The translations under genes were made by a program, and so were the position numbers. The notes under the pieces were generated by a model. It was given only the letters and a program-made list of their open reading frames with translations. It made no database searches and had not been told where the DNA came from. Of a stretch of 64,000 nucleotides of DNA, positions 10,181-25,146 are shown piece after piece; position 1 is the first letter of the stretch, and every line of letters begins with the position of its first letter. Where the stretch lies: contig JAPEIS010000008.1 of NCBI GenBank assembly GCA_029531795.1, forward strand, positions 1,612,001-1,676,000, in the 5' to 3' direction. Source of the DNA: Sclerotinia nivalis. Its lineage: Eukaryota; Ascomycota; Leotiomycetes; Helotiales; Sclerotiniaceae.

Positions 10181-10954
10181 GACAATTAATAAGGTTAGGT
10201 TAGGTTCAAATCCGGGAGGAAGGGAAGTCGATGGTGGGTTGATTGTTGACGTAGCGGCTCAAGCTAAAATGGGTTGCGTGCTAAAAAGGAACCAAGACAT
10301 TAGACACAGCAATGGATCGAAAATTCAATAAGGAAGCAGGAAATCCGAGATGATCTTGAGAATAAGGTAAATAAAATGACTCTTGGATATGAGAGAAATG
10401 TTATTGGAGGTAGGTAGTTGTATGTATGTAGGTAGGTAGGTAATGAAATATTGTATGTTTTTGTTTTGTTACCTTCCAAGTTATGAGAATAGAATGATAA
10501 TTGGCGAGATGAACTAGAATCGAAGGGGAAGAATAACTACTAGTACTCCGTATGTAATGTAGGTCATAGTATGACAAGCAGGAGGGTCCTGTATGTACCC
10601 TGTATGTATGCGTTTGCTTTGTGAGGCAAATCGAATAAAGAGAAATAAGTGTATGACGCTTTCTGCACCGAAGAATAAAATATAAATATCGTTATGGTAT
10701 CATGAAAATTTTACTTCCAGAGATGTTTCGCATCTAAGTAAATCCCCAATGAAAGACATTAGGAGGGGAGGCACTAGGGTAGTGTTATGGATTAAACATA
10801 AATCAAGCTCAAGAAAGATCAAGATCAATAGCTTCATAAGAATTAGATAAGTAGGATATCTATAACCTGGTGGACAAATTAGCATTCACCAAATCGGACA
10901 TGTTTCTACTTATAGTTATTAAAGTTATATCTGTTTTCCATTCCAAATCTTGAA

Positions 10955-11002
10955 ATTCATTCATTCACTCATTCACTCATCACTCATTCATTCACTCATT
11001 CA
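10955..11002 (+). repeat. ATTC/ACTC tetranucleotide tract
   Basis: Imperfect run of ATTC and ACTC units; plain microsatellite. Confidence 0.8.
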
Positions 11003-11218
11003 TAAATACAGGAAAAGGTACAGTAAAAGTAAATATGAAATTTTTGATCTTAATTTCATGGGTGATCCAATGATTTACATTGTGATAAGTAAGTAAACCC
11101 AGATTCCAAGGATTCCAAGATTCCAAGGATTCATAATGAGAAGTTTCCCCCATGACGTGGATAATGTACTCCACTTTTATGGAACCGGGGGATTTAAATG
11201 GTGGAGGGGTCGAGTCGG

Positions 11219-11257
11219 GTATGAATGAATGAATGAATGAATGGATGAATGGATGAA
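11219..11257 (+). repeat. GAAT/GGAT tetranucleotide tract
   Basis: Run of GAAT units with interspersed GGAT; complementary in composition to the tract at 10955-11002, so the two could pair as an inverted repeat about 220 bp apart. Confidence 0.8.
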
Positions 11258-12303
11258 GAAGGAACAAACATAACAAAACAAACCGAAACCAAAACCAAAA
11301 CAAAGAAACCTTAAACCAAGACTAGGGGAACCAAAATGAGAAGAGAAATCTTGTTTTCGGCCCAAAAAGATAATTTATAATTTCAACATTGGCGAACGAA
11401 TAAGACGAATAGTTCCAACTTCATACAATGAGGTTATTCCAAATACATGCCGAGCAAGATAGAGAGAACTGTCAACTTGCTTTGTTTGGGTTTTGATGAT
11501 ATTTCATAATTGAGATTGATTGGTTAGATTATTGATGACTAAGTAATCTAGTTCTCAGAGAGAAATGGGGAATATAAGCTCAAGATCTCGTCATTAACTA
11601 CTTGTGCATCCATCACTAGCTTATCGTTCAAGTCTGTACAACCACCATCCTTTTCTTCTTATCTAACCACGTGCCACATACATATTCACATGTGCATCTT
11701 AATCTACCAAGTATTTCTCCGTACATACATATTTTCATGTGCTCTGTAAAAATAGGTAATTACACATATCCAGGATCTTAACAAATTCTTTTTTTCAAAT
11801 TTAAATCTGCATCCTTCCGAGTTCCGAGTCCCGAGTCCCGTGTCCCGTGTCCCAACTCCCTACTAGGTACTTTATTAGGAAACAGAAAGATCCACCGTGA
11901 AAAAATCACCCATCAATCGAGCGACTTTGACTAAAAATCACTACTGTACAACTTGCCCCATACCAATTTGCGATCAAGGGTGTCTTCTACTTGATTGAGT
12001 CTAGCATGATGATCTCCCGTTGGGATCCCCTTACTTATTCTGTTCCCCGCAAATGACTCGATCATCCAGCTTGTTCCAGCTTCTTTCCTTAAGGGGATCG
12101 GAATCACGGGGGAAGCTTAAAGAAGCTCGAGAAAGGTACGATATAAGACATGTGAGACAAAGTCAAGACAAAGTCTCAATATATCAGTGGACGGTGGCGA
12201 CGAGGTATTAAGACAGGTCTACCAAATTTTCTTGAAGGGTTTTTTTTGGGTCCTTTTCATAACCTTTTCGGTAATTTTACATGATTTCGCTAATTATTCT
12301 TCT

Positions 12304-12350
12304 AGGATTAGGATTAGGATTAGGATTAGGATTAGGATTAGGATTAGGAT
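12304..12350 (+). repeat. GGATTA hexanucleotide tract
   Basis: About eight tandem copies of GGATTA. The unit differs by one base from the fungal telomere unit TTAGGG (here TTAGGA) and is interstitial. A two-copy piece recurs at about 39301-39314. Confidence 0.85.
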
Positions 12351-12567
12351 CAGGATCAACTTGGTCAGCGATGCAAAGGATATCGAATTCTAAAAAGAAC
12401 CATAATTTGATTCCAATAATTCGGGTCTGTGTCATCCCTACAAACTACCCACCAGTTGACGGTCTCAGTCAATCTCAACGGTTTGACCTCGGAATGTACT
12501 ACTTCAATTCCATGATTAATAATAGTGTCATTGTCTTCCGTTATTGATCAGAGCCTTGGCTGGGGCA

Positions 12568-14045
12568 TCACAACAATTGCCGTGTGAAAACACCTTGCGG
12601 ATCCCATTTCTGCTTCAATGATTTCAACTTCTCTAACCTTTCTTCTCCACGATATCGTCGTTCAATAGGATCTGTTCGATTGCAATTTGCATAATCAACC
12701 CAGTCTTCCTCAGCATGGCCGTCTCTCATGGCTGCGATCGCTTTGTTCTCGAAGTCGAGCACGGTGTCATGATTTTCTGCTTTGTGATACCATGAGAAAC
12801 AGTTGCTAAGCGCGAAAGAAAGAGCAAAGTTAGCATTTGTGTGGGCCGCATTTTTGAGGGGATATCCTTACAGCCATAAATGAACATGTTCACATTACCA
12901 AATGTCGAAGTGGCGGGAGGTAATTTTGAGGTGCCAGTATGCCACTCGAATGCATAACCAGTAGCACCAGCGTCGGGGCAGGTAGCTAACAACTCTTTGT
13001 AAATCTGGATAACTTTCAAGAAATTTTGGCCTCTGAAATCAGGAAAGCCCGCCAAGCTGAATCGTTTAAAATCTCCTTTTGCACAGGCGAAACCCAAGTG
13101 GTCGCTTAAATGTGGGTAGATGTGGGTAGTGAGGACTTGATGCTGAGAACATAATTGGATTCAGATCTGTGAGAGGCTGAAATGCAAGAGGTGCTTCCCC
13201 TGGATCTCCCCTAAATTTGAGACTGTCATTAAACGTTCAGGCAAGTGGGTACATATGCATTTTTCCTTGACAGTATTTTTGCACGCGCAGCCTGTCCACC
13301 TGCTTGTGAGGGTAAGGAGAAGATTCAGGTCGGATGAAAACTTACATGAAATGGGGTGCAACTGCAAGCATTGGCTGGAATGCTGGTGGTGGTGCCATTA
13401 CCATCATTATCCCAGCGGTATTGTACTTCGTGGTGACCATCAATCGTTCCATTGCGCTGCACACTTCCTCCGCGCGATCTAAAGGATACAAAAAGTTGCC
13501 GACCCAGTGCGCGCCTGATGGGGTCCCAAAGATTGACAATGGATACGTCTTTAAAGTCAGTTCCAGCACCACCCCAAACATTTGGCCTGCTCCTTTGATC
13601 GCCCAGAGTAGTTCAGGCTCAACCTCTTCACTTGCATGTACAAGTGTACCATCAGCGGTGATAATTTTTGCTTTCAATATTTGATCGCATCCGAAACCGA
13701 CCATACCAGCCAAAGTACTGATGCCGCCACCAAGACAGAAGGGGATAACTCCGACAGTGTTTCCATTGCCGGTTGCTAAGATGAAAAATGAATAATAGAA
13801 CCTGAGACCACTGTCGGATGATTTAAGAAACCACTGTCTTACCTGTACATCGACCGACTTCGAACAAGGCGGTAGACAAGACGGCCCCAGTGACGATGAC
13901 TGATTGGGATTCCGTATCAATACTGATTGATTTGCAGAGACCTAAGTCAAGAACGAAGCCCGACGAGTCAATAGTTGACCATGGGCTATGACCGCCACTT
14001 GCTGACACGAAAGGAATTGAACTCTCATGGGAAGCTTTGACCTGT
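12568..14045 (-). pseudogene. Berberine-bridge-like FAD-linked oxidase, truncated and frameshifted
   Basis: Remnant of a secreted-type FAD/PCMH (BBE-like) oxidase. Visible coding blocks on the minus strand are about 14040-13843, 13775-13346, 13210-12872 and 12805-12568, with introns of 67, 135 and about 66 nt. FAD-domain motifs are present: SASGGHSPWS, GNGNTVGVIPFCLGGG and ELLWAIKGAGQMFGVV. The C-terminal end is WDPQGVFTRQLL then TGA at 12568-12570. The block before GGHS, including the signal peptide and the start of the FAD domain, is missing: upstream DNA is SDR sequence on the other strand. A 10-bp tandem duplication at 13110-13129 shifts the frame between NPIM and YPHLSDHLGF. At the last intron, the GTAAGG donor and TTAG acceptor do not join in frame; a weak GTTCAT donor would. 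Confidence 0.8.
13110..13129 (-). repeat. 10-bp tandem duplication causing a frameshift
   Basis: ATGTGGGTAG occurs twice back to back on the plus strand (13110-13119 and 13120-13129). On the coding strand, removing one copy joins SSPHYPHL and SDHLGFACAKG in a single frame; with both copies the frame is lost. Confidence 0.85.
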
Positions 14046-14059
14046 AGTCTGTTATACCC

Positions 14060-14401
14060 ATCCTTCTGTTCATCAGCACTGTACTAGGCTCAACCACCGC
14101 ACGCTCTGATCCTACCCACCCCTTCACACAAATACAAGCTACCGGCTACCGCACCAGCAAGGCAGGCCTAAATATGCTCATGGCATGCTATACCCAAGAT
14201 CCTGCTAGAAATCATCTGAAAGTTTTTGGCATTTGTCCAGGGTTCTTGGCCAGTGAGTTGAGTGGCCCTCCAGACATGATGCGAAAGATGGGCGCAGCAG
14301 AGCCGGAGACAGGTGCAAGTCTTATTCTCAGCGTAGTGAATGGTGAGAGAGATGCTGATCAAGGCAAAGTTGTTTGCAGTGATGGTGTCAGAGATTGGTG
14401 A
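14060..14401 (+). pseudogene. Short-chain dehydrogenase/reductase, C-terminal fragment
   Basis: The second half of a classical SDR is readable on the plus strand, ending with TGA at 14399-14401. It retains the Y-x-x-x-K catalytic pair (GYRTSKAGLNML), the family's CPGFLAS segment and the ERDADQGKVV..DGV end typical of fungal carbonyl-reductase-like SDRs. The NAD(P)-binding N-terminal half (TGxxxGIG and NNAG) is absent; the frame closes at a TAG just upstream, near 14047. The only ATGs in frame lie after the catalytic region. The fragment abuts the truncated 5' side of the FAD-oxidase relic on the opposite strand. It could only be functional as an exon of an unseen spliced gene, for which no upstream coding is visible. 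Confidence 0.75.
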
Positions 14402-16083
14402 TATTGCCTCATTTCACTTCTCCCATGAAGTTTGCAATGATAATCTTGAATCTTACCGGCATTAGTCTGAATGTTAATTATGCTGCGCGAAAAGTTCCTG
14501 TGCAGTTTCTCAATCATCTAAAACTCTTTTGCAAGTCTTAACTTTTTTCCTTTCTATCTATGAATGGGAGTTGAGAAGCATTTGTTGCTATCAGCTGTGC
14601 TTCATCATGGAACATTGAGCTGCTCACTCAACTGAATAATTCGGCCAAGTACGTGAGGACTTGGTTTATCATTCTGAAGTCCATCTATACTCGGCCACAA
14701 TGTAACGGGAGCTGGTGGCGACGATCAAGAATTCTGTAGTATCATCGTTCAGTCAAGACATCTCATTTAAGCTAGACGATATGAATTTTCAAGACCAACC
14801 GGAAAGGCGTTGATTCGTGCACGTACATCAAGATGTTCACTGATATGAGGTGTTCGGCTTGTGTCCACAGGCTGGGATAAAACATGTCAATATTATATGC
14901 TGTAAATTGAGCATACACAATTTCTATAGCTACCTAGTGACACCAAACCAGATATTGACCGAAGGGTTCCTTTTTTATATAACAGCAGAAAGAACATCGA
15001 CGTAACCCTAAACTTTCTTCTAGGTGACATCCGATGGCCGACATGAATGCCGTCGGAAGTACCAATATGTATTCGTCTAGTATGGGTCCAACGGCAGACG
15101 GTGGTACGGATAGCCGGATGATATGTTTTTTACCCTCGGAAGCCTGGCGTCAACCATGAAAAGATGTTGAGGTGTTGAAAAGACAAAACGATGATCGTCA
15201 GGACCACATACGTTATTTCCGCTGTAGCTAACTCTAACCAGGAACAAATTCGAAGCCACCTTAGCTGATTGAACACATGCAGATATAGGATGAAGAAACT
15301 AGACTTGATAAACAGGAAAGTGAGAGACGAAAGTACGATGATGGGCCAGGCTGGCTATAAATCCGTTTGGTGGGTTTTGTACTTCCACAACTACTAGTCT
15401 AGCTCCCTCGGTGGTCATTCATTTACAATCAGGAGATCTAAACGCAATATATTGTCCTATATACTGTGAAACCATCGAGGAGCCGTGATTAACTACTTAG
15501 CCTCAAGAGCATAATTGGAAAAGATTCGTCTAAAGAAGAATAGTTGCAGAAAAGTAGGGTGGCACAGCACACAAGGATTTTCAAGTATGTTCCAAACATC
15601 TTTCCCCCCAAAACGATACTTTCTTGTGTGGCTACAAGTATCGTTGTTCTTCACAAAATATGTAAGTAAAATGAGACATGACACCTATGTGACATGACGG
15701 TGCTGGGTCAATCACCTACCTGTTTGATATTAATGCCAACATGCATATTGGCGGCACAGCATGACGTGCCGTAGTTTGGGTACCAGAACATGGCGTGATG
15801 AAAGGAAGCTCGCAAAAAATTTGTTACTAATGATAAGCTCGTTAAGGGGAATGGAATGCCAAAGGATTTGAGGGGTTTCTTGAAATTTATTTTCAGCTTC
15901 CGTTACCAAGTAGTGAATCTACTTTGATACAACAACGCCGCAGCTTGTTGCAGGGCTGGATGGCAATTAGGACGACATACCAACCTCCAACCTAATACTA
16001 TCCCTATCTATTTTACACATTTTTAAGGTTGCGTATTCCTATTATTCGAGGTCCCAATTCAAGCAAAACTGTCGTTGATCGCA
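14402..16083. other. Intergenic, 1.7 kb
   Basis: No open frame or family signature was recognised. It presumably contains lost parts and promoters of the relic cluster. Confidence 0.4.
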
Positions 16084-17323
16084 ATGGCGACAATAGCTCA
16101 GAAATCAAATGGCGCAAATGATCACCTCACTGTCCTCGTGATCAGAGGCTGCGGGTTTGTTAGCTACCACCTTGTATGTCATTTTGTTGAAGATACGACA
16201 TTTTCTACCCGTCGCCGTCGCGAGTCGTTCTGCCCAACAAACCAAAGACATCAACCGAGTTAATGGGGCGAGCTACTACGATGTTGATCTTACCAATCAT
16301 AGCTCAATTGATAATCTGATCGAAGTAGTTAAGTCCACCGTGATTGTGCACGCAGCGTCTCCATCCCCCGTAACAGGAACACCGAGAGACTACGACGAGG
16401 TAACGATCCAAGGAACAAAAGATCTTCTCAGAATTGCAAAAATATCGAAGGATGTACGAGCTCTTGTTTACACCTCTTCATCCCTTCTGTGCAAAGGTCC
16501 ACAGCATGTTAATCTTAACGAAGAATCTCCACTTGCCGACAGCGACCCTGGAGCTCCCACCTATGCTAAAGCCAAAGCTCTCGCAGAGAAACTAGTCTTG
16601 AATGCAAACGAACCCTTACCAATTGATGAAGCTACACACGAAGTATATACATGGGAAGGCTACCTCTGCACCGGGGCTCTAAGATTTCCAATTATCTACG
16701 GAACGCATGATCCGATTTGTATACCCGGTGCTCTTAACGCCTTGCAGAAGCGTCGAACAAACGTAGTTTTGGGCAATGACGACAATCTCTGGAGTTTCTG
16801 TAGCGTCAAAAATGCAGCAGTCTCTCACGTTTTACTTGCACGAGCTCTCCTTTCCACGCATAAACGAAGATCCTCTAACCCTACCACGGCAAATGGAGAG
16901 GCATTCCATATCCACGATGGCGAAGCACGTAAATTTTGGGATTTTGCAAGGATGATCTGGAGGTTTGCAGGTTATACGCCGAAGAATGAACGGATTTCTT
17001 ATTTGCCAACATGGTTTGCGTTGGCCCTTTCACCATGCCTAGAATTTGTGTTCTGGATATTTACATTTGGGAGGAAACGGCCATATCAACTGGGGAAACA
17101 GCAGGTGGAGTATGCACTATTCGAACATACGTATAGTATTGAAAAGGCGAAAATGATACTGGGTTATGAACCAATTCAGGATTTTGAGAGGGCGCTTGAG
17201 GAGTCGGTGATGTGGTCGCTGGAGCATGATGGCTGGGCAAAGAAACTTGAGAATGTAGTTGGGGGATGGGATATTGTCAACACAAGGTTCTTTTGTAGTC
17301 TCGAGAAGCATTTCCCGAGATGA
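16084..17323 (+). pseudogene. 3-beta-HSD/ERG26-like NAD-dependent dehydrogenase, frameshifted
   Basis: A member of the 3-beta-hydroxysteroid dehydrogenase / sterol-4-alpha-carboxylate 3-dehydrogenase family. The N-terminal block begins at the ATG at 16084 and reads TVLVIRGCGFVSYHLVCHF. Continuation into PVAVASRSAQQ needs loss of one base near 16207; from there the frame is open to TGA at 17321-17323. Retained features: VIVHAASPSP, YTSSS, the catalytic Y-x-x-x-K (TYAKAKALAE), ALRFPIIYG and a central hydrophobic segment. The dinucleotide-binding G-x-x-G-x-x-G is degraded: two expected glycines read Arg and Ser, each a G-to-A change from Gly. No GT/AG pair was found that removes the shift. It may be a decayed gene or, less likely, a sequence error in a diverged one. 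Confidence 0.7.
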
Positions 17324-17902
17324 CTTTCAAACTAAATATTTATCTACCACATCATTTAACATCCCGCTCGAGTTCACGTTCATTATGTGCTCCTGGTTTT
17401 TGGAACCAGAGTAGCTTCCCATTAACCAGTCTTGAGTCATTGATTTCTTAAAATTCACTCGTATGCCATGAGGATTTGTGGGAAAGAACATGCTTCAGGA
17501 CTACAGCCACTTAGAACTTCCCGGGGATTTCGGCGCATTATACTTGAATCGGCCAATATAAGTATTAGGTATTAACTTATCACGCTGTCCATCCAGTCTT
17601 TCATCATAACTATTGGCAATTGGATTCCTTGCTGACTGTGGCCGTATCGTACAACATCACACATACTTCAGACCCCAATGTAGCAAGAAACGAGCAACAA
17701 GAAACCAACGGAAAATGTTGGTTCTCTATACACACATTATTCGCCATCAGGGGAACTGTAAATTAATCACAATATTATGTAATGGGATTACTGTTAGACG
17801 GAAAGCCGCAAATATCCAATGGTGTAAAGTTAATTGTTAAATCAAACAAATCAACCTCAACCTCAAACACTTAACTTTCAAAAGGCAGATTCATCGACAA
17901 AC
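17324..17902. other. Intergenic between relic dehydrogenase and P450
   Basis: These 579 bp separate two genes on the same strand. No coding content; it would include the P450 promoter. Confidence 0.5.
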
Positions 17903-19561
17903 ATGCTGGCCAATTTCGAGATCTATCTGCTCCTAGCTATCATAGGAGCATCATTTACTATTTTAATGAGGGGTCTCCGTGGCAGGATTAGCAAAAACTC
18001 CCAGGAGCCCCCCGAAGTCTCAGCAACCATTCCATACCTTGGTCACGCCATAGGTCTCTTTTGGTACAGAAGTGCATACTACACCAGATTTTGGTAAGTC
18101 CTACCTACGGAGAGCAGAATTTATCGTAAAGCCGAATAATTAGCACTGACAAGCAAACTTCTAAATGCATAGCTAAAAATGGAAAGCGATAATCATTTCG
18201 ATCTCCATGTTCGGCGGAAAAATTCATATCGTCGGCTCCACAGAGTTGATGCATTCTCTTCAACGACAGGGCAAGACAGCCTCGTTCTGGTACCTGGAGG
18301 CCCGGTTCATAGCCGAGCTCGGCGGCCTGGGCAGAGATGCATCGAGGAAACTGGTTGCTGATTTAGAGCCGGCTTCTGAGAAACCTAGTCTTCTGATAAA
18401 TGGATTGAAGGCCACACAGAAGGCGATGTCCCCCGTTGGTGAAGTCGATGACATGATCCGTATTGGAGCAAAAGTTATCCAGGCTCGCCTTGACAATCTA
18501 GCAGACGAAGCAGGCAATAACAATTCAAATACCGATCTTTGGGCATGGGTTCAGCACGAAATCTCAATCGCCACAACGGAGAGTGTGTATGGCCCGGCAA
18601 ACCCGTATCGGGATCCAAAGGTGGAAACTGGGTTCTGGTATGTTGTACTAAATAGCTTATCTCTATCGGATACAGCTGACCTTGATCTAGGAGCTTTGCT
18701 GATGACAACATGACGCTGTTGCTAACACAGTATCTTCCCAATCTCGTTGCTTCGAAACCTTCTAAGGGTCGAGCCGCAGTAGTAGAGGCAATGCGACGTT
18801 TTTTCGCTAATAGCGCCCACGAGAATGGCTCATCGCTTGTCAAAGCAAGACATTCAACTCTGTCTGCCGAGATGACTCTCGACGACCTTGCTAGGTGCGA
18901 GTGTGTAAATGGAACCGCAATAATGTCGAACACGGTCCCTACAGCTTTCTGGACGCTGTTCCACATATTCTCCGATCCAGCGCTTCTTGAAGAGGTTCGT
19001 AAACAGGTCCGGGCAATAACAACCACGGAAAGATCGCCTCAAACTGGTGTTTTGGAAAACAAGATCAATCTTCGGAGGTTAAAAGATGCGCCAATACTCT
19101 TCTCTACTCAGCAAGAAGCTTTAAGATTCCGAGCTACTGGATCAAGACCACGTATGGCCATGGAAGATATGATCGTTGGAGACAACCAGTATCTGCTTAA
19201 GAAGGACTCAATTGTGATCATAGCGCATAGGGCATTGCATTTCGATAAGGAAACATGGGGGGAGACTGCTGATTCATTTCGTGCAGATCGCTTTTGTGGC
19301 AAGGTTCCTGGACATGCTTTCCGAGGTTTTGGCGGTGACTTGAATTTATGTACTGGTCGAGGTTTTGCTATGGCAGAGGTAGCAGCGCTCACGGCAATGC
19401 TAGCAATGAGGTTCGATGTAGTACCAGTGGAGAAGAGCTGGGTTGAACCCGGCCAGGATCTCAACAACATGGCTGTTCAGATTGCTCCCCCCGGAAGGAA
19501 AGTCATGGTAAATATAGTAAGAAGGGAAGATTCATACCGGGAGAAATGGTTTTTTGAGTAA
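17903..19561 (+). pseudogene. Cytochrome P450 (CYP7/CYP8-like), exon 1-2 join broken
   Basis: A haem monooxygenase with an N-terminal membrane anchor (YLLLAIIGASFTILM) followed by PYLGHAIGLF. Blocks: exon 1 17903-18093, exon 2 18173-18637, exon 3 18691-19561. Intron 2 (53 nt) is in phase. In exon 3 the K-helix ExxR is EALR, the haem loop is FGGDLNLCTGR, and the I-helix region reads SNTVPTAFWTLFHIFSDP, which resembles CYP7/8-like fungal P450s. Joining the GTAAGT donor at 18094 to the CATAG acceptor at 18172 puts TAA (18174-18176) in frame; the expected AKNGK block there is readable only in another frame. Either small indels broke the gene or the true splice was missed. The rest of the protein is intact, so inactivation would be recent. 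Confidence 0.65.
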
Positions 19562-20581: not shown

Positions 20582-21731
20582 TTAAACCACCACTTTCAGC
20601 TCGCATACTTCTTCGATTTGCTCTACGGTATCGTCCCCCTGGAATATGTATTGTACCGGCGTGCTTTGTTGCCCTTCGAGGCGCAAAACATGTCTAATCG
20701 CAACCTGCTGCCAATCTCGAAGCCTTGCGATAGCTTGATTTGGTGAATGGGCTATCGGAGCTATAATGAGGGGCAGCCTATGAATATACTTTAAATCGCC
20801 CCTCAAATCCCTACCAGAACGACAGGTGTGGATAACCTGTCTCCACAAGTTACCGAACTCGATTACATGCGGTGGAAGCCCCTCCATGAAGGCATTAGGG
20901 AGACTCAATCGGATTATCAACGGTGGTGAAGTCGATGCTCGTCGTTTAATATGATTACGATACTGCTCTGCCACCTGGAAATCTGGAGCAAAGTAAAGCA
21001 CTGTGCCTCCAAAGCCTCGGAAGTCGCTCGGAGTCCCACTCACTAGAGAGCCAATTTCAATATTGCCCTCCATATCCCTTCTCACTCGTTCTGTGGAGAT
21101 GGCCTTGTACAAGGCTAGATGACCTGGTACATTCGATGTCCTTGGGACCGTATCGGTTGCGATACCAGTACTGGGGGTGTTTATATTTTCCGCCCTTAAG
21201 TCGCTATCCCTCTTGATCCTCTCCAAACTTAAATATCGAATCTCCATTGTGTCTCTGACCCAATGCTGTGCCGACTCTGTCAACCTCACATTCGAAAACT
21301 CGGCATCCATGATAGCGTCGATGAGTTCTGAAATAACCCCCCAATTCCGCATATGTTCTTCCCAGTCGTCTGAGCTCGTTATAGGGGATGAAGCCGGTGG
21401 TATGGTCGAGAAATAGTACCTCAAAGATAGTACCGTGCTGTGTTTCGGTTGCCTGAATTGTTCTCCATCGTGCCCATATTTCAGCAGCTTTCTGGGAGGC
21501 CCAACCGAGCCATTCGAGTGTTTCCTCACTTTCGAGAAATTCTGGTATCAAGGTATAGACTCTAGCATCTTCTGCTGAGCCTTCTGACCCCTCAGATTCG
21601 GAGGAGGAGGGCGGCTCGGAGTGTGAGATGGAGGTCGCAATAAGTCTTCTTCTGTTGACCGCTGGCTTCACAAGGTTTCGTTCCGTTAGAAATGCATCAT
21701 CAACCGCATTAAAGATGGGTTTAGATGCCAT
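20582..21731 (-). CDS. Unrecognised protein, 361 residues
   Basis: I do not recognise this family. Two exons, 21731-21434 and 21369-20582, flank a 64-nt GT/AG intron with a CTATAAC branch-like site. The intron joins two long overlapping open frames in phase (99 codons plus one base, then two bases plus 262 codons including stop). The N-terminal 60 residues are polar with a Ser/Glu-rich run; the rest looks globular, with Trp-rich WLGWASQKAAEIWARW, a helical DDWEEHMRNWGVISELIDAI segment and RLTESAQHWVRDTM. No signal peptide or membrane segment is evident. The gene lies between the relic cluster and a transposon-derived region, so it may belong to a lineage-restricted family. Confidence is good that it is coding, low for function. 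Confidence 0.65.
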
Positions 21732-22182
21732 CGTGAGGGTTGGTGTAATTTGAGGTTATATTGTAGTGGATTTATTTGATTTGATCTGAAGTAAACTGGA
21801 CGTTGATCAAAGTGTAACAGCTTTGGTTGGTTTAATGTAAAGTAAATGGGTTGTATTGTATTGTATTGTATTGGAATGGAATGGGATCAAAGCAACCTAT
21901 TTATAGAGGGGGGAAATACACATTTTGCCATATGATTCACATTAATTCACTAGGTTGCGGGGTACTTCACTTCGAATAATCATTATTACTACCACTAACT
22001 CATTCCTTAGAGAATTTGTTCAAGACCTAAGATTTATAGTGACACTGACGGATTCAGACTATATATTTGACACCTTAAGCGACTCTCGAACGGGAATAGC
22101 TTCATTTAAGCGAGCTTTTCGAAGCTTACATAAATTCAACTTTTCGTAGCAATAGAGGTATTTAGAGAGGAAATACACTAGC

Positions 22183-22476
22183 TACCGTCTAAACTCAAGT
22201 GTTTCGGATCATACTAAACCCTTTTGAAATAAGGTTATTTATTATTTCCTATTTCCTGGTGGAAGAATCAGTAAAGTGGATTGAAATTTTTCAACTTGTT
22301 AATCCACTTTCATCATACATTTATAACCTTATTCCATAATAGGGTGTTACCAGATATGATATATATAACCATTTAGGTTCGATTCCTAACGCCGGCCTCC
22401 GTGGTGGAGTGGGTTATTATATTCATTATGTTTTCTTAGGGAAAGTGAGATCCGAAACACTTGAGTCTAGACGGTA
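22183..22476. mobile_element. 294-bp MITE nested in the larger element
   Basis: Terminal inverted repeats at 22185-22210 and 22449-22474 match over 26 bases with one mismatch and are flanked by TA on both sides (22183-22184 and 22475-22476). Inside are two further inverted pairs: AAAGTGGATT/AATCCACTTT around 22274-22310, and AATAAGGTTAT/ATAACCTTATT around 22228-22334. The element is non-coding. Removing it restores the terminal sequence of the surrounding element. Confidence 0.8.
22373..22412 (+). other. tRNA-like B-box and A-box motifs in reversed order
   Basis: Bases 22373-22389 form a T-arm-like hairpin, TTAGG-TTCGATT-CCTAA, whose GGTTCGATTCC matches the Pol III B-box consensus. Thirteen bases after the arm, TGGTGGAGTGG (22402-22412) fits the A-box consensus. 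In a normal tRNA gene the A-box precedes the B-box. Confidence 0.35.
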
Positions 22477-23597
22477 TCTCCTCCCCATTTGAAAAGATCT
22501 GTCTTTAAAGAAATGACTAGGATGCTTAATACGCTTTACCCTTTTTAAAGATAACTAATTTCAGATTAGAGGTCTTTAGCAAAGAAATAAACTAGCTCAT
22601 CCCTTGTCGATCTTGTCTAATATGGCAAGGTGAAGTAGAAAATTAAAAAGGGGGCTTATTCCTCTTTCATCTTCCGAAGATTCTACAAAGTGGACGTAAG
22701 AAATGCAATTGCTTCGTTATCAATTGTACTTCTTATGGAAATGAAGCTAGCTATCTCTTAAAAGAGTATAGTAAAAGGTTGAAAAAGGATTAGTGTTGAA
22801 TTTGAATTTAGCTCCGACCATTTGTGTTAGGTAAACAATTTTTAGTATAGGTATGAATAAAATAGATCAAAACTTACTTTCATCTTGAAAATTTCCATAG
22901 AATCAGTAGGGTCTATTAGGCTCAAGTGCAGCTATTCTGATGATTTAAAGGCCACCCCAAACCGTGATAGGAAAGGTTATCAAGAAATAACTAGTTTAAT
23001 GCCTCTCTAAATACCTCTAACCAGTGACAAATAGAAAGTGTAAGCACTTTTTAACTACAAAACTCTATAGCAGCCATCTAATATACCCAAGATAGGCTTA
23101 CCAGTAGATGCTAATAGAGGTTCTTGCCCGAGCAATTTCCTTTACGCTACTAGTTTCATGAAGAGGGAGATAAGCGAAGGAAGGCAAAAACCCTCCTCTA
23201 AAGTGGATGGGAACATTCCCTGGATGAATACTCATTCATTGTTCATTCATTTTCATCACATAGAAGAACGCGGTGGATGAATGGAAGGATTGAAAGACAA
23301 GCTCGAAATGAAGTAATGAATATGTGCTCAAAGCCGGTTAATGCCATCTACGCCCAGAATATATACGACCCTCAATGTCCACAGAATTTAAGTGTTCTAC
23401 TTGGTAGCTCCGAAACTTTCGATAACTACCATGCAATTCAATGTTTGAATAGGGATGAATACCTTTTCCTACACTCCTCGCTCCGACGCCACTGTATGCA
23501 TTTATGGAGGAACACAGACTAGACCTTCCCATCCTAATACTAATGGCCCCACGATAACTCCAAGTTCGCCTATAATACGTAAGAATTCCGCAGTCCA

Positions 23598-25146
23598 TTA
23601 CTCAACCTCTGTTGCCTCAGGTGGCAGTGTAACCATAGCCTTAAGTCTCGTTCTCCTCCTCGGGGGTGTCTTTGGTGGTACTTTTTTCTGCAAATTACTT
23701 GCTCTAACCGTCGGTGGAAGTGGAGGCAGCGCACGTTTCTTCCTCTGAAGTTCGTCTGAGGTTGCCATCACAGGCGCATCATGATCGTGTGCGGCGCTTT
23801 CACTTTCCGCTTTGCGACTTGGTGTTTGGACACCAGGTTTTTCTGTGACAGCAGCTACATCTGAAACACTTACCGAGCTTCCAGTTTGTGACGGCGAAAG
23901 ACTCATACCGAGGAGTTTCCGCGCTACTTCGCCTTCGCTGATGTCATCATCTCGGAGCCAGGGAACTTTGGCTACTCGCTCGACGAGTCGTATCGTGGTT
24001 TCGTCTGCTGGCTCCCAATGTGCATTGCCTGATCCACCGAGGATGCTTAGAACTTTTACTACTTCATCTTTCTTGTAGTGTGGTGGTTGTTGTAATTGTG
24101 TATGTGCAAGTAATGGGTAGAGGACTCGAAGATATGTGTGACGAAGAGAGACAAACTCATTAGGGAGATCGAGAAGGTTACGAATTATAACATCTAAGAG
24201 GACGCGGAGATCATTAGTGTAGAAGTATTCGTAGGTAGCCTTTGTAGTAAACAATAAGTATAAAAGCTTGAGTATCAGAAGTTGTAGAGAAGTTTCAGTT
24301 TCGCGGTTGAGTAGAAGAATAATATTCTCCCCGAATGTCATATATGATGACCCTTTGTGGCTGAGAATTTTAACAACTCGATTTGTTAGAGAATGTGAAG
24401 GATCCGATGTTGATGTAGAAGCAACCATATATTGTTCATTCAAGACTAGCTAGAGAAGCTGTTAGCAGTTGGCGCATAAAACCTTCAGCAGGGACTTACC
24501 AAAACCCGAATGACAGGGTAATGATAAGGATCATCAACATCATCTGATAGCTCTTCAATGATTTGAAAGAGACATGCGACAAAGTCATCATCTACCTGAC
24601 CTAAGTCTTCGAAACTGATTCTTTGCATCCTCGACATCTCGTACAAAAGTTCCAATAGTAGTCTATGCAAAGTTGGATCTTCTCTGTTCCCTTTCTTAAC
24701 CAATTCCAACAACCTTGGGAAACATCCCTCCTTATTCATCATCTCGAAAGTTGCTTCATTCTGGCGTCCATCGAATAGTAGAAAGCTCGCTATCACATGC
24801 AGGGTAGCCGGTACGTCCTCCTGCATAAGACTATAGACAATCTGCGTCCTCACGTAGTCCTTATTCGCCGCGAACAGTTCGCTCTGCATTAACTTGTGCA
24901 AACATTTTGCGACCTCGAACTCTGATTGCAGATATTCCTCTTTAAAGTTGGTTGTGAATTGTAGGTAGGATCGCAATGCATTATCAATTAATTGATGTGA
25001 GGCACATTTCGCAGAAACGATGTCATCGATTTCTAGAAGCAATTTTCAGTACCCAAGTGACACAAGTCTCAAGTGACCTATATATACATACCATCCCAGA
25101 ATTGCTGTTCATTATCTAAAGTGTATGCGACCTCGAATCCATCCAT
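23598..25146 (-). CDS. ldb17: LDB17/SPIN90 (Dip1) family actin regulator
   Basis: Family members activate Arp2/3 complex for linear actin seeds at endocytic sites. Three exons: 25146-25092, 25032-24500 and 24449-23598, with introns of 59 and 50 nt in phase; about 479 residues. The central all-helical leucine-rich domain is clear: [44 protein letters not shown] and [13 protein letters not shown], at about residues 220-300. The C-terminus is a low-complexity tail with PPLPP and PPKTPPRR, candidate SH3-binding sites. The start ATG at 25146 begins [19 protein letters not shown], which matches the family's beginning. It shares strand with the downstream co-chaperone; no functional link is implied. 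Confidence 0.88.

What the first reader, a model, noticed from the sequence alone, without database searches (positions are those of the whole stretch)
12568..19561. Relic specialised-metabolism cluster: four adjacent damaged oxidoreductases
Seen: BBE-like FAD oxidase, SDR fragment, 3-beta-HSD-like dehydrogenase and CYP7/8-like P450 lie side by side, and each has at least one lesion (truncation, frameshift or unjoinable exon). The surrounding genes are intact. Known: this enzyme set is typical of oxidative tailoring in fungal terpenoid or steroid-like pathways. Inferred: a former biosynthetic cluster has decayed in place, with the P450 the least damaged.
Basis: partly seen in the sequence, partly recalled or inferred. 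Interest (0 to 1): 0.75.

Follow-up and report, generated by a model that had tools for sequence, protein, structure and literature searches.

The report
Two dead oxidoreductase gene pairs
In a plant-infecting white-mould fungus, four neighbouring enzyme genes are broken remains of what look like two separate small gene pairs rather than one lost pathway, and one of these pairs is still whole in several related fungi and damaged in others.

Summary
The window is Sclerotinia nivalis contig C8. Four oxidoreductase genes at 12568-19561 are all broken. BBE-like oxidase (minus strand): 5' part missing, a 10-bp tandem duplication and a second frame change. SDR (plus strand): only about the last 90-115 codons remain. 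3-beta-HSD/Erg26-like dehydrogenase: a frame change plus loss of two glycines of its NAD motif. CYP7A1-like P450: its exons do join canonically; the lesion is an in-frame stop at the start of exon 2, plus two private heme-loop changes. Public models step around the last two lesions.

The "one former cluster" reading is only partly supported. Dehydrogenase and P450 are an old tandem pair: their hits share a contig length in 18 cases, from Leotiomycetes to Dothideomycetes. None of 12 BBE hits shares a contig length with any dehydrogenase or P450 hit, including four relatives that have both BBE and dehydrogenase. BBE and SDR meet head to head, both lacking 5' parts, so one breakpoint can explain both. 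No PKS, NRPS or squalene-cyclase-type core gene lies near. Composition shows no RIP. P450 models are also incomplete, differently, in S. trifoliorum and three Botrytis. Substitution rates alone do not prove decay.

The parts
12568..14044 (-). BBE-like FAD oxidase pseudogene: remaining exons 14044-13843, 13775-13346, 13210-12872, 12805-12568; introns 13776-13842, 13211-13345, 12806-12871, all GT-AG; first coding part missing
   Evidence: tblastn with Rutstroemia and Cudoniella proteins; splice sites read; Pfam pieces; no exon-1 match better than E=0.26 in the window
13110..13129 (-). 10-bp tandem duplication where the BBE reading frame changes
   Evidence: sequence; frame change between the frames, with relatives
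12890..12902 (-). second BBE frame change (approximate place)
   Evidence: frames against relatives; sequence
14044..14129 (.). breakpoint interval: BBE homology (minus) ends at 14044; SDR homology (plus) is firm from 14129 and, by one of two paralogues, starts at 14057
   Evidence: shuffle test of 14048-14128: 14 of 2000 reach the score with paralogue C6, 555 of 2000 with C16
14057..14401 (+). SDR remnant, C-terminal part with the YxxxK site; Rossmann part missing
   Evidence: tblastn with own-genome paralogues C6 (5e-18) and C16 (8e-18); Pfam adh_short
14402..16083 (.). intergenic stretch: no Pfam match over a cut-off, no other copy found in the genome
16084..17323 (+). 3-beta-HSD/Erg26-like dehydrogenase pseudogene (public model OCU04_007675); frame change at about 16205-16209
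16144..16164 (+). NAD-binding motif reads RGCGFVS where relatives read GGxGFxG
   Evidence: one search list: 57 of 58 pattern-matching hits keep both glycines, the exception being the S. nivalis protein; 14 of 72 did not match the pattern
16174..16192 (+). 19-nt 'intron' implied by the public gene model, which steps over the frame change
   Evidence: P0001 read against the DNA
17903..19561 (+). CYP7A1-like P450 pseudogene (public model OCU04_007676 starts inside exon 2): exons 17903-18093, 18173-18637, 18691-19561; introns 18094-18172 and 18638-18690
18174..18176 (+). in-frame stop codon at the start of P450 exon 2, at a place that relatives with a full model read through
19328..19357 (+). heme-binding loop FGGDLNLCTG; the Asp and the Thr occur in no other hit that matches the pattern
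   Evidence: 101 of 108 hits match F..x...CxG; 4th residue G in 96, D in 1; residue after Cys P in 97, T in 1

Best explanation
The interval holds two independent losses side by side. (1) A conserved two-gene tandem, an Erg26-like 3-beta-hydroxysteroid dehydrogenase followed by a CYP7A1-like P450, has been switched off in S. nivalis by a frame change in the first gene and a stop codon in the second; cofactor-site residues (NAD glycines, heme loop) have changed as well. (2) A BBE-like oxidase and an SDR, facing away from each other, were cut at one breakpoint (between 14044 and 14057, or at most 14129) that took both 5' parts, for example by deletion of a shared divergent promoter region; the BBE also has two frame changes. 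Shown: lesions, junctions, pairing of dehydrogenase and P450 elsewhere, no near core enzyme of the three classes tested. Inferred: that a deletion rather than another rearrangement made the breakpoint, that the BBE and SDR were ever neighbours before it, that the first pair acts on a sterol- or triterpene-like substrate, and that the losses are recent.
For: 100% identity to S. nivalis proteins and equal contig length 2,724,704. Lesions. Pairing: 18 contig lengths shared between all 72 dehydrogenase and all 108 P450 rows; adjacent locus tags in S. nivalis, B. convoluta, B. aclada, Cudoniella and B. hyacinthi; a B. fragariae model runs from the dehydrogenase C-terminus into the P450 N-terminus. 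BBE: 0 of 12 share a contig length with either. Other damage elsewhere: P450 models lack 51, 73, 102 and 123 of 289 exon-3 core columns in S. trifoliorum, B. hyacinthi, B. paeoniae and B. fragariae; dehydrogenase models lack 107 and 123 of 351 in B. fragariae and B. hyacinthi. No RIP signature.
Against: Substitution patterns do not by themselves prove decay: private changes on invariant columns are 3 of 24 for the dehydrogenase main frame, 0 of 11 for the BBE middle, and 10 of 33 for the P450 against 17 of 107 in relatives, p=0.08. No DNA of relatives was reachable, so no dN/dS and no view of the ancestral gene order. In Monilinia vaccinii-corymbosi the pair shares a contig but the locus tags are not consecutive. 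Public P450 models of Ciborinia, B. convoluta, B. hyacinthi and B. paeoniae start at the same late Met as the S. nivalis one, so a missed first exon or a similar lesion there is open. The tight 14057 edge of the SDR rests on one of two paralogues. The small lesions rest on one assembly.
Confidence: 0.78

Rival explanations
1. One former four-gene (or larger) biosynthetic cluster decayed in place; its core enzyme was deleted and relatives have since split the cluster.
For: Four oxidoreductases in 7 kb, all broken, with ordinary cell genes around; the breakpoint could have removed further genes.
Against: 0 of 12 BBE hits share a contig with the pair, four species having both BBE and dehydrogenase; none of the 12 BBE hits is named as Botrytis, Monilinia or Ciborinia, which have the pair (8 of the 12 lack a name or come from other genera); no PKS, NRPS or squalene-cyclase-type gene near.
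Confidence: 0.15
2. The dehydrogenase and P450 lesions are assembly errors or strain-specific, and the pair works in S. nivalis; only BBE and SDR are dead.
For: One small lesion in each frame; the dehydrogenase main frame is 78% identical to Monilinia and shows no excess of changes at invariant sites.
Against: Two NAD-motif glycines and two heme-loop residues are changed too, at sites other species keep, which read errors would hardly target; long neighbouring frames are open.
Confidence: 0.12
3. The genes were silenced by repeat-induced point mutation after duplication.
For: A stop codon and glycine losses are of the kind that such mutation can make.
Against: RIP indices of the four genes are ordinary (product index 0.53-0.70, substrate index 1.23-2.04), GC is not lowered, and the pieces searched have no other genome match above 53% protein identity.
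Confidence: 0.02

Closest known systems
Degenerate bikaverin cluster of Botrytis cinerea B05.10/T4 (PMC3538735, passages seen)
   Same: Broken secondary-metabolism genes with stops and deletions in a Sclerotiniaceae genome, whole elsewhere
   Different: Bikaverin is one real cluster with a known core PKS and product; here there seem to be two pairs, no core gene was found and the product is unknown
Erg26 / sterol-4-alpha-carboxylate 3-dehydrogenase (PDB 6jkg)
   Same: Pfam 3Beta_HSD; best solved relative by sequence (E=4.5e-12)
   Different: Distant; genomically paired with a P450; NAD motif damaged here
CYP7A1 cholesterol 7-alpha-monooxygenase (PDB 3dax, 3sn5)
   Same: Best solved relative of the P450 (E=5e-16), ahead of the other 58 of the 60 rows shown
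   Different: Fungal, substrate untested, heme loop changed, stop before most of the protein
Berberine-bridge-like FAD oxidases of Rutstroemia (P0182-P0184)
   Same: 74-78% identity over the 146 residues searched
   Different: 5' part missing and two frame changes here; there on another contig than the dehydrogenase

Membership tests
Decayed fungal biosynthetic gene cluster | Several adjacent pathway-type genes with disabling lesions | tested here: met
Decayed fungal biosynthetic gene cluster | Core enzyme (PKS, NRPS, cyclase) or its remains in or near the interval | tested here: not met
   terpene-synthase search uninformative
Decayed fungal biosynthetic gene cluster | Same genes contiguous and whole in relatives | tested here: inconclusive
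   dehydrogenase and P450 together (18 contigs) but 0 of 12 BBE hits with them; contig breaks possible; SDR linkage not testable
CYP7/CYP8-like cytochrome P450 | Best solved relative CYP7A1 by sequence | tested here: met
   E=5e-16
CYP7/CYP8-like cytochrome P450 | FxxGxxxCxG heme motif | tested here: not met
   the conserved Gly is Asp; the Cys is kept
3-beta-HSD/Erg26-like dehydrogenase | Pfam 3Beta_HSD over its cut-off | tested here: met
   117.6 bits against cut-off 22
3-beta-HSD/Erg26-like dehydrogenase | Glycine-rich dinucleotide motif, in frame with the rest | tested here: not met
   two glycines changed and the motif lies in another frame
BBE-like FAD oxidase | FAD_binding_4 plus BBE domain in one spliced open frame | tested here: not met
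   both domains only in pieces, each below its cut-off; frames broken
Short-chain dehydrogenase | N-terminal Rossmann motif plus YxxxK | tested here: not met
   YxxxK kept; no match to the N-terminal part of two paralogues in the window better than E=0.35

The most novel reading that the evidence does not exclude
The dehydrogenase/CYP7-like P450 tandem is an undescribed fungal two-gene module kept together from Dothideomycetes to Leotiomycetes, possibly a steroid- or triterpene-modifying pair formally like the CYP7 plus 3-beta-HSD steps of animal bile-acid synthesis (that comparison is recalled, from no call), and it is being lost again and again, independently, within Sclerotiniaceae.
Probability: 0.3. 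Interest if true: 0.5.

Novelty: new member of a known kind. Interest (0 to 1): 0.3.

Why it matters
It turns a four-gene 'relic cluster' into what look like two separate losses, one explicable by a single breakpoint. It shows public gene models hiding pseudogenes by a 19-nt intron or a late start. It also points to a conserved P450/dehydrogenase pair, on which seven literature searches listed nothing, whose patchy loss in white and grey moulds can be tested by comparison.

Tried and rejected
Repeat-induced point mutation: rejected on composition. Further broken genes in 14402-16083 and 10261-12568: six-frame Pfam scans with X at stops gave only matches below the cut-offs (best E=0.017). Repeated element between SDR and dehydrogenase: no other copy found in the genome. 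Missing BBE first part elsewhere in the window: no match better than E=0.26 with exon-1 parts of three relatives. Missing SDR N-terminal part: none better than E=0.35 with two paralogues. Terpene synthase PF19086: the control rang in 0 of 14 genomes, so nothing can be said. Relaxed constraint from substitutions: suggestive only for the P450, p=0.08. In that count one change (W1R) was dropped because it comes from a codon split by an intron; comparison rows were 12 of 72 dehydrogenase, 13 of 108 P450 and 6 of 12 BBE hits, chosen as near relatives with long models; of the 13 P450 rows only seven (P0074-P0080) enter the 17 of 107. In one search the printed tally of the second glycine used a wrong index; the count given here was made from the printed list. 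Literature: 7 searches, listings of at most 15 papers each; by title and start of abstract none was about this locus or the pair. Passages of PMC3538735 were seen; a search for six terms in PMC6941272 found none. A Botrytis cluster paper looked up by DOI is not held.

Full report
Source. The window is G000:C8:1612001-1676000 of a 50.3-Mb genome in 31 contigs. Its dehydrogenase and P450 match S. nivalis proteins OCU04_007675 and OCU04_007676 at 100%, on a contig of the same length as C8, 2,724,704. S. nivalis is a leotiomycete of the Sclerotiniaceae.

BBE-like gene. It runs on the minus strand. Alignment with Rutstroemia and Cudoniella proteins and the sequence give exons at 14044-13843, 13775-13346, 13210-12872 and 12805-12568, with three GT-AG introns. 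The part coding for the first residues of relatives (56-82 residues in P0182 and P0185) is absent. The frame changes at a 10-bp tandem duplication (13110-13129) and again near 12890-12902. A four-residue in-frame gap lies in the FAD-binding part. The best of 12 hits is 78% identical, so no S. nivalis protein of 279-889 residues holding this piece is in that database.

SDR remnant. On the plus strand, matches to two own-genome paralogues run to the normal stop at 14401. One paralogue (C6) matches from 14057, the other (C16) from 14129. For the stretch 14048-14128, 14 of 2000 shuffles reach the score with C6, but 555 of 2000 with C16. The remnant keeps YxxxK and lacks the Rossmann part. BBE homology ends at 14044, so the two opposite genes meet within 13 bases, or at most 85, and both lack their 5' parts. 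One breakpoint can explain both truncations; deletion, inversion or translocation cannot be told apart without DNA of relatives.

Dehydrogenase. The first ~41 codons of 16084-17323 are in one frame and the rest in another. Its NAD motif has lost two glycines: 58 of 72 hits matched the motif pattern and 57 of these keep both glycines, the exception being the S. nivalis protein itself (the pattern allowed only G/R and G/S at these sites; 14 hits, partial or odd models, did not match). The public model avoids the frame change by a 19-nt intron.

P450. The gene (17903-19561) has three exons with canonical junctions. The 'unjoinable exon' is a stop codon at 18174-18176, just after the first acceptor. 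The public model starts further inside exon 2. Two heme-loop residues are changed: in the 101 of 108 hits with the loop pattern, the Asp and the Thr occur only in S. nivalis. Of the 36 best P450 hits, 8 have a model that runs through the region of this junction (P0074, P0076, P0077, P0079, P0081, P0085, P0090, P0094). Ciborinia, B. convoluta and B. hyacinthi models start at the same late Met, and so does B. paeoniae. That may be a missed first exon or similar damage, so 'whole' is judged there on exon 3 only.

Is decay visible in substitutions? Private changes at columns invariant in the other relatives: dehydrogenase main frame 3 of 24, BBE middle 0 of 11, P450 10 of 33 after dropping one artefact, against 17 of 107 in seven close P450 relatives (p=0.08). 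The case therefore rests on the disabling lesions and cofactor-site changes, not on rates; recent loss is the simplest reading.

One cluster or two? Cudoniella is a leotiomycete and Lophiotrema a dothideomycete. Locus tags are adjacent in five species, but not consecutive in M. vaccinii-corymbosi. A B. fragariae gene model runs from the dehydrogenase C-terminus into the P450 N-terminus, the same order as here. Of 12 BBE rows, 0 share a contig length with any of these. Rutstroemia BBW, WRK4, BVV2 and Cudoniella have both BBE and dehydrogenase hits (the P450 too in all but BVV2). Contig breaks could cause some of this; the Cudoniella BBE contig is only 8,785 bases. None of the 12 BBE hits is named as Botrytis, Monilinia or Ciborinia, but 7 of the 12 carry no name and the search needs shared 5-residue words.

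Core enzymes. Genome searches gave 43 ketoacyl-synthase matches (nearest on C8 ends at 617,027, about 1.0 Mb away), 25 condensation-domain matches (none on C8) and 3 squalene-cyclase-type matches (none on C8). The terpene-synthase search was uninformative. Of 20 long frames of the window scanned outside the four genes, none matched a core enzyme; 7 had no Pfam match at all.

Repeated loss. P450 models of S. trifoliorum, B. hyacinthi, B. paeoniae and B. fragariae lack 51, 73, 102 and 123 of 289 exon-3 core columns; dehydrogenase models of B. fragariae and B. hyacinthi lack 107 and 123 of 351. The other named Sclerotiniaceae in those trees lack 0-1, except B. convoluta (P450 19) and B. aclada (dehydrogenase 18). 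S. trifoliorum keeps the Pro after the heme Cys that S. nivalis has lost, and S. nivalis keeps stretches that S. trifoliorum lacks. Draft assemblies or gene prediction may explain some of these. Tree support among the short branches is weak.

Function. The P450's best solved relative is CYP7A1 and the dehydrogenase's is sterol-4-alpha-carboxylate 3-dehydrogenase. A sterol- or triterpene-modifying pair is therefore the likeliest role of whole copies, by inference only.

Verdict. Real pseudogenes, ordinary in kind; the single-cluster reading is only partly supported; the conserved pair and its patchy state in Sclerotiniaceae are the part worth following.

Noticed in passing
window 20582-21755 (-): Two overlapping minus-strand frames (321 and 183 aa); the longer has no Pfam match, the shorter was not scanned. 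Whether an intron or a frame change separates them was not resolved, so this neighbour may not be intact.
   Followed up: partly
window 12303-12356: Nine copies of TAGGAT in tandem just downstream of the BBE remnant.
   Followed up: no
window 22001-24000: The stretch with the highest TpA/ApT index of the window (1.01) and, at 22001-23000, low GC (0.345); possibly a RIP-touched remnant.
   Followed up: no
L005 (G000:C12:845001-855000): A second 3-beta-HSD-like gene (32% identical) and a BBE-like piece (37%) lie about 4 kb apart elsewhere in this genome.
   Followed up: no
L002 4215-5135 (G000:C7): The closest P450 paralogue (53%); among six long frames scanned in these 10 kb there is no dehydrogenase.
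   Followed up: partly
L001 4813-5661 (G000:C17): The closest BBE paralogue (50%, no Pfam match for this frame) and another BBE-like piece lie about 20 and 8 kb from a ketoacyl synthase at C17:488641, so perhaps in a polyketide cluster.
   Followed up: no
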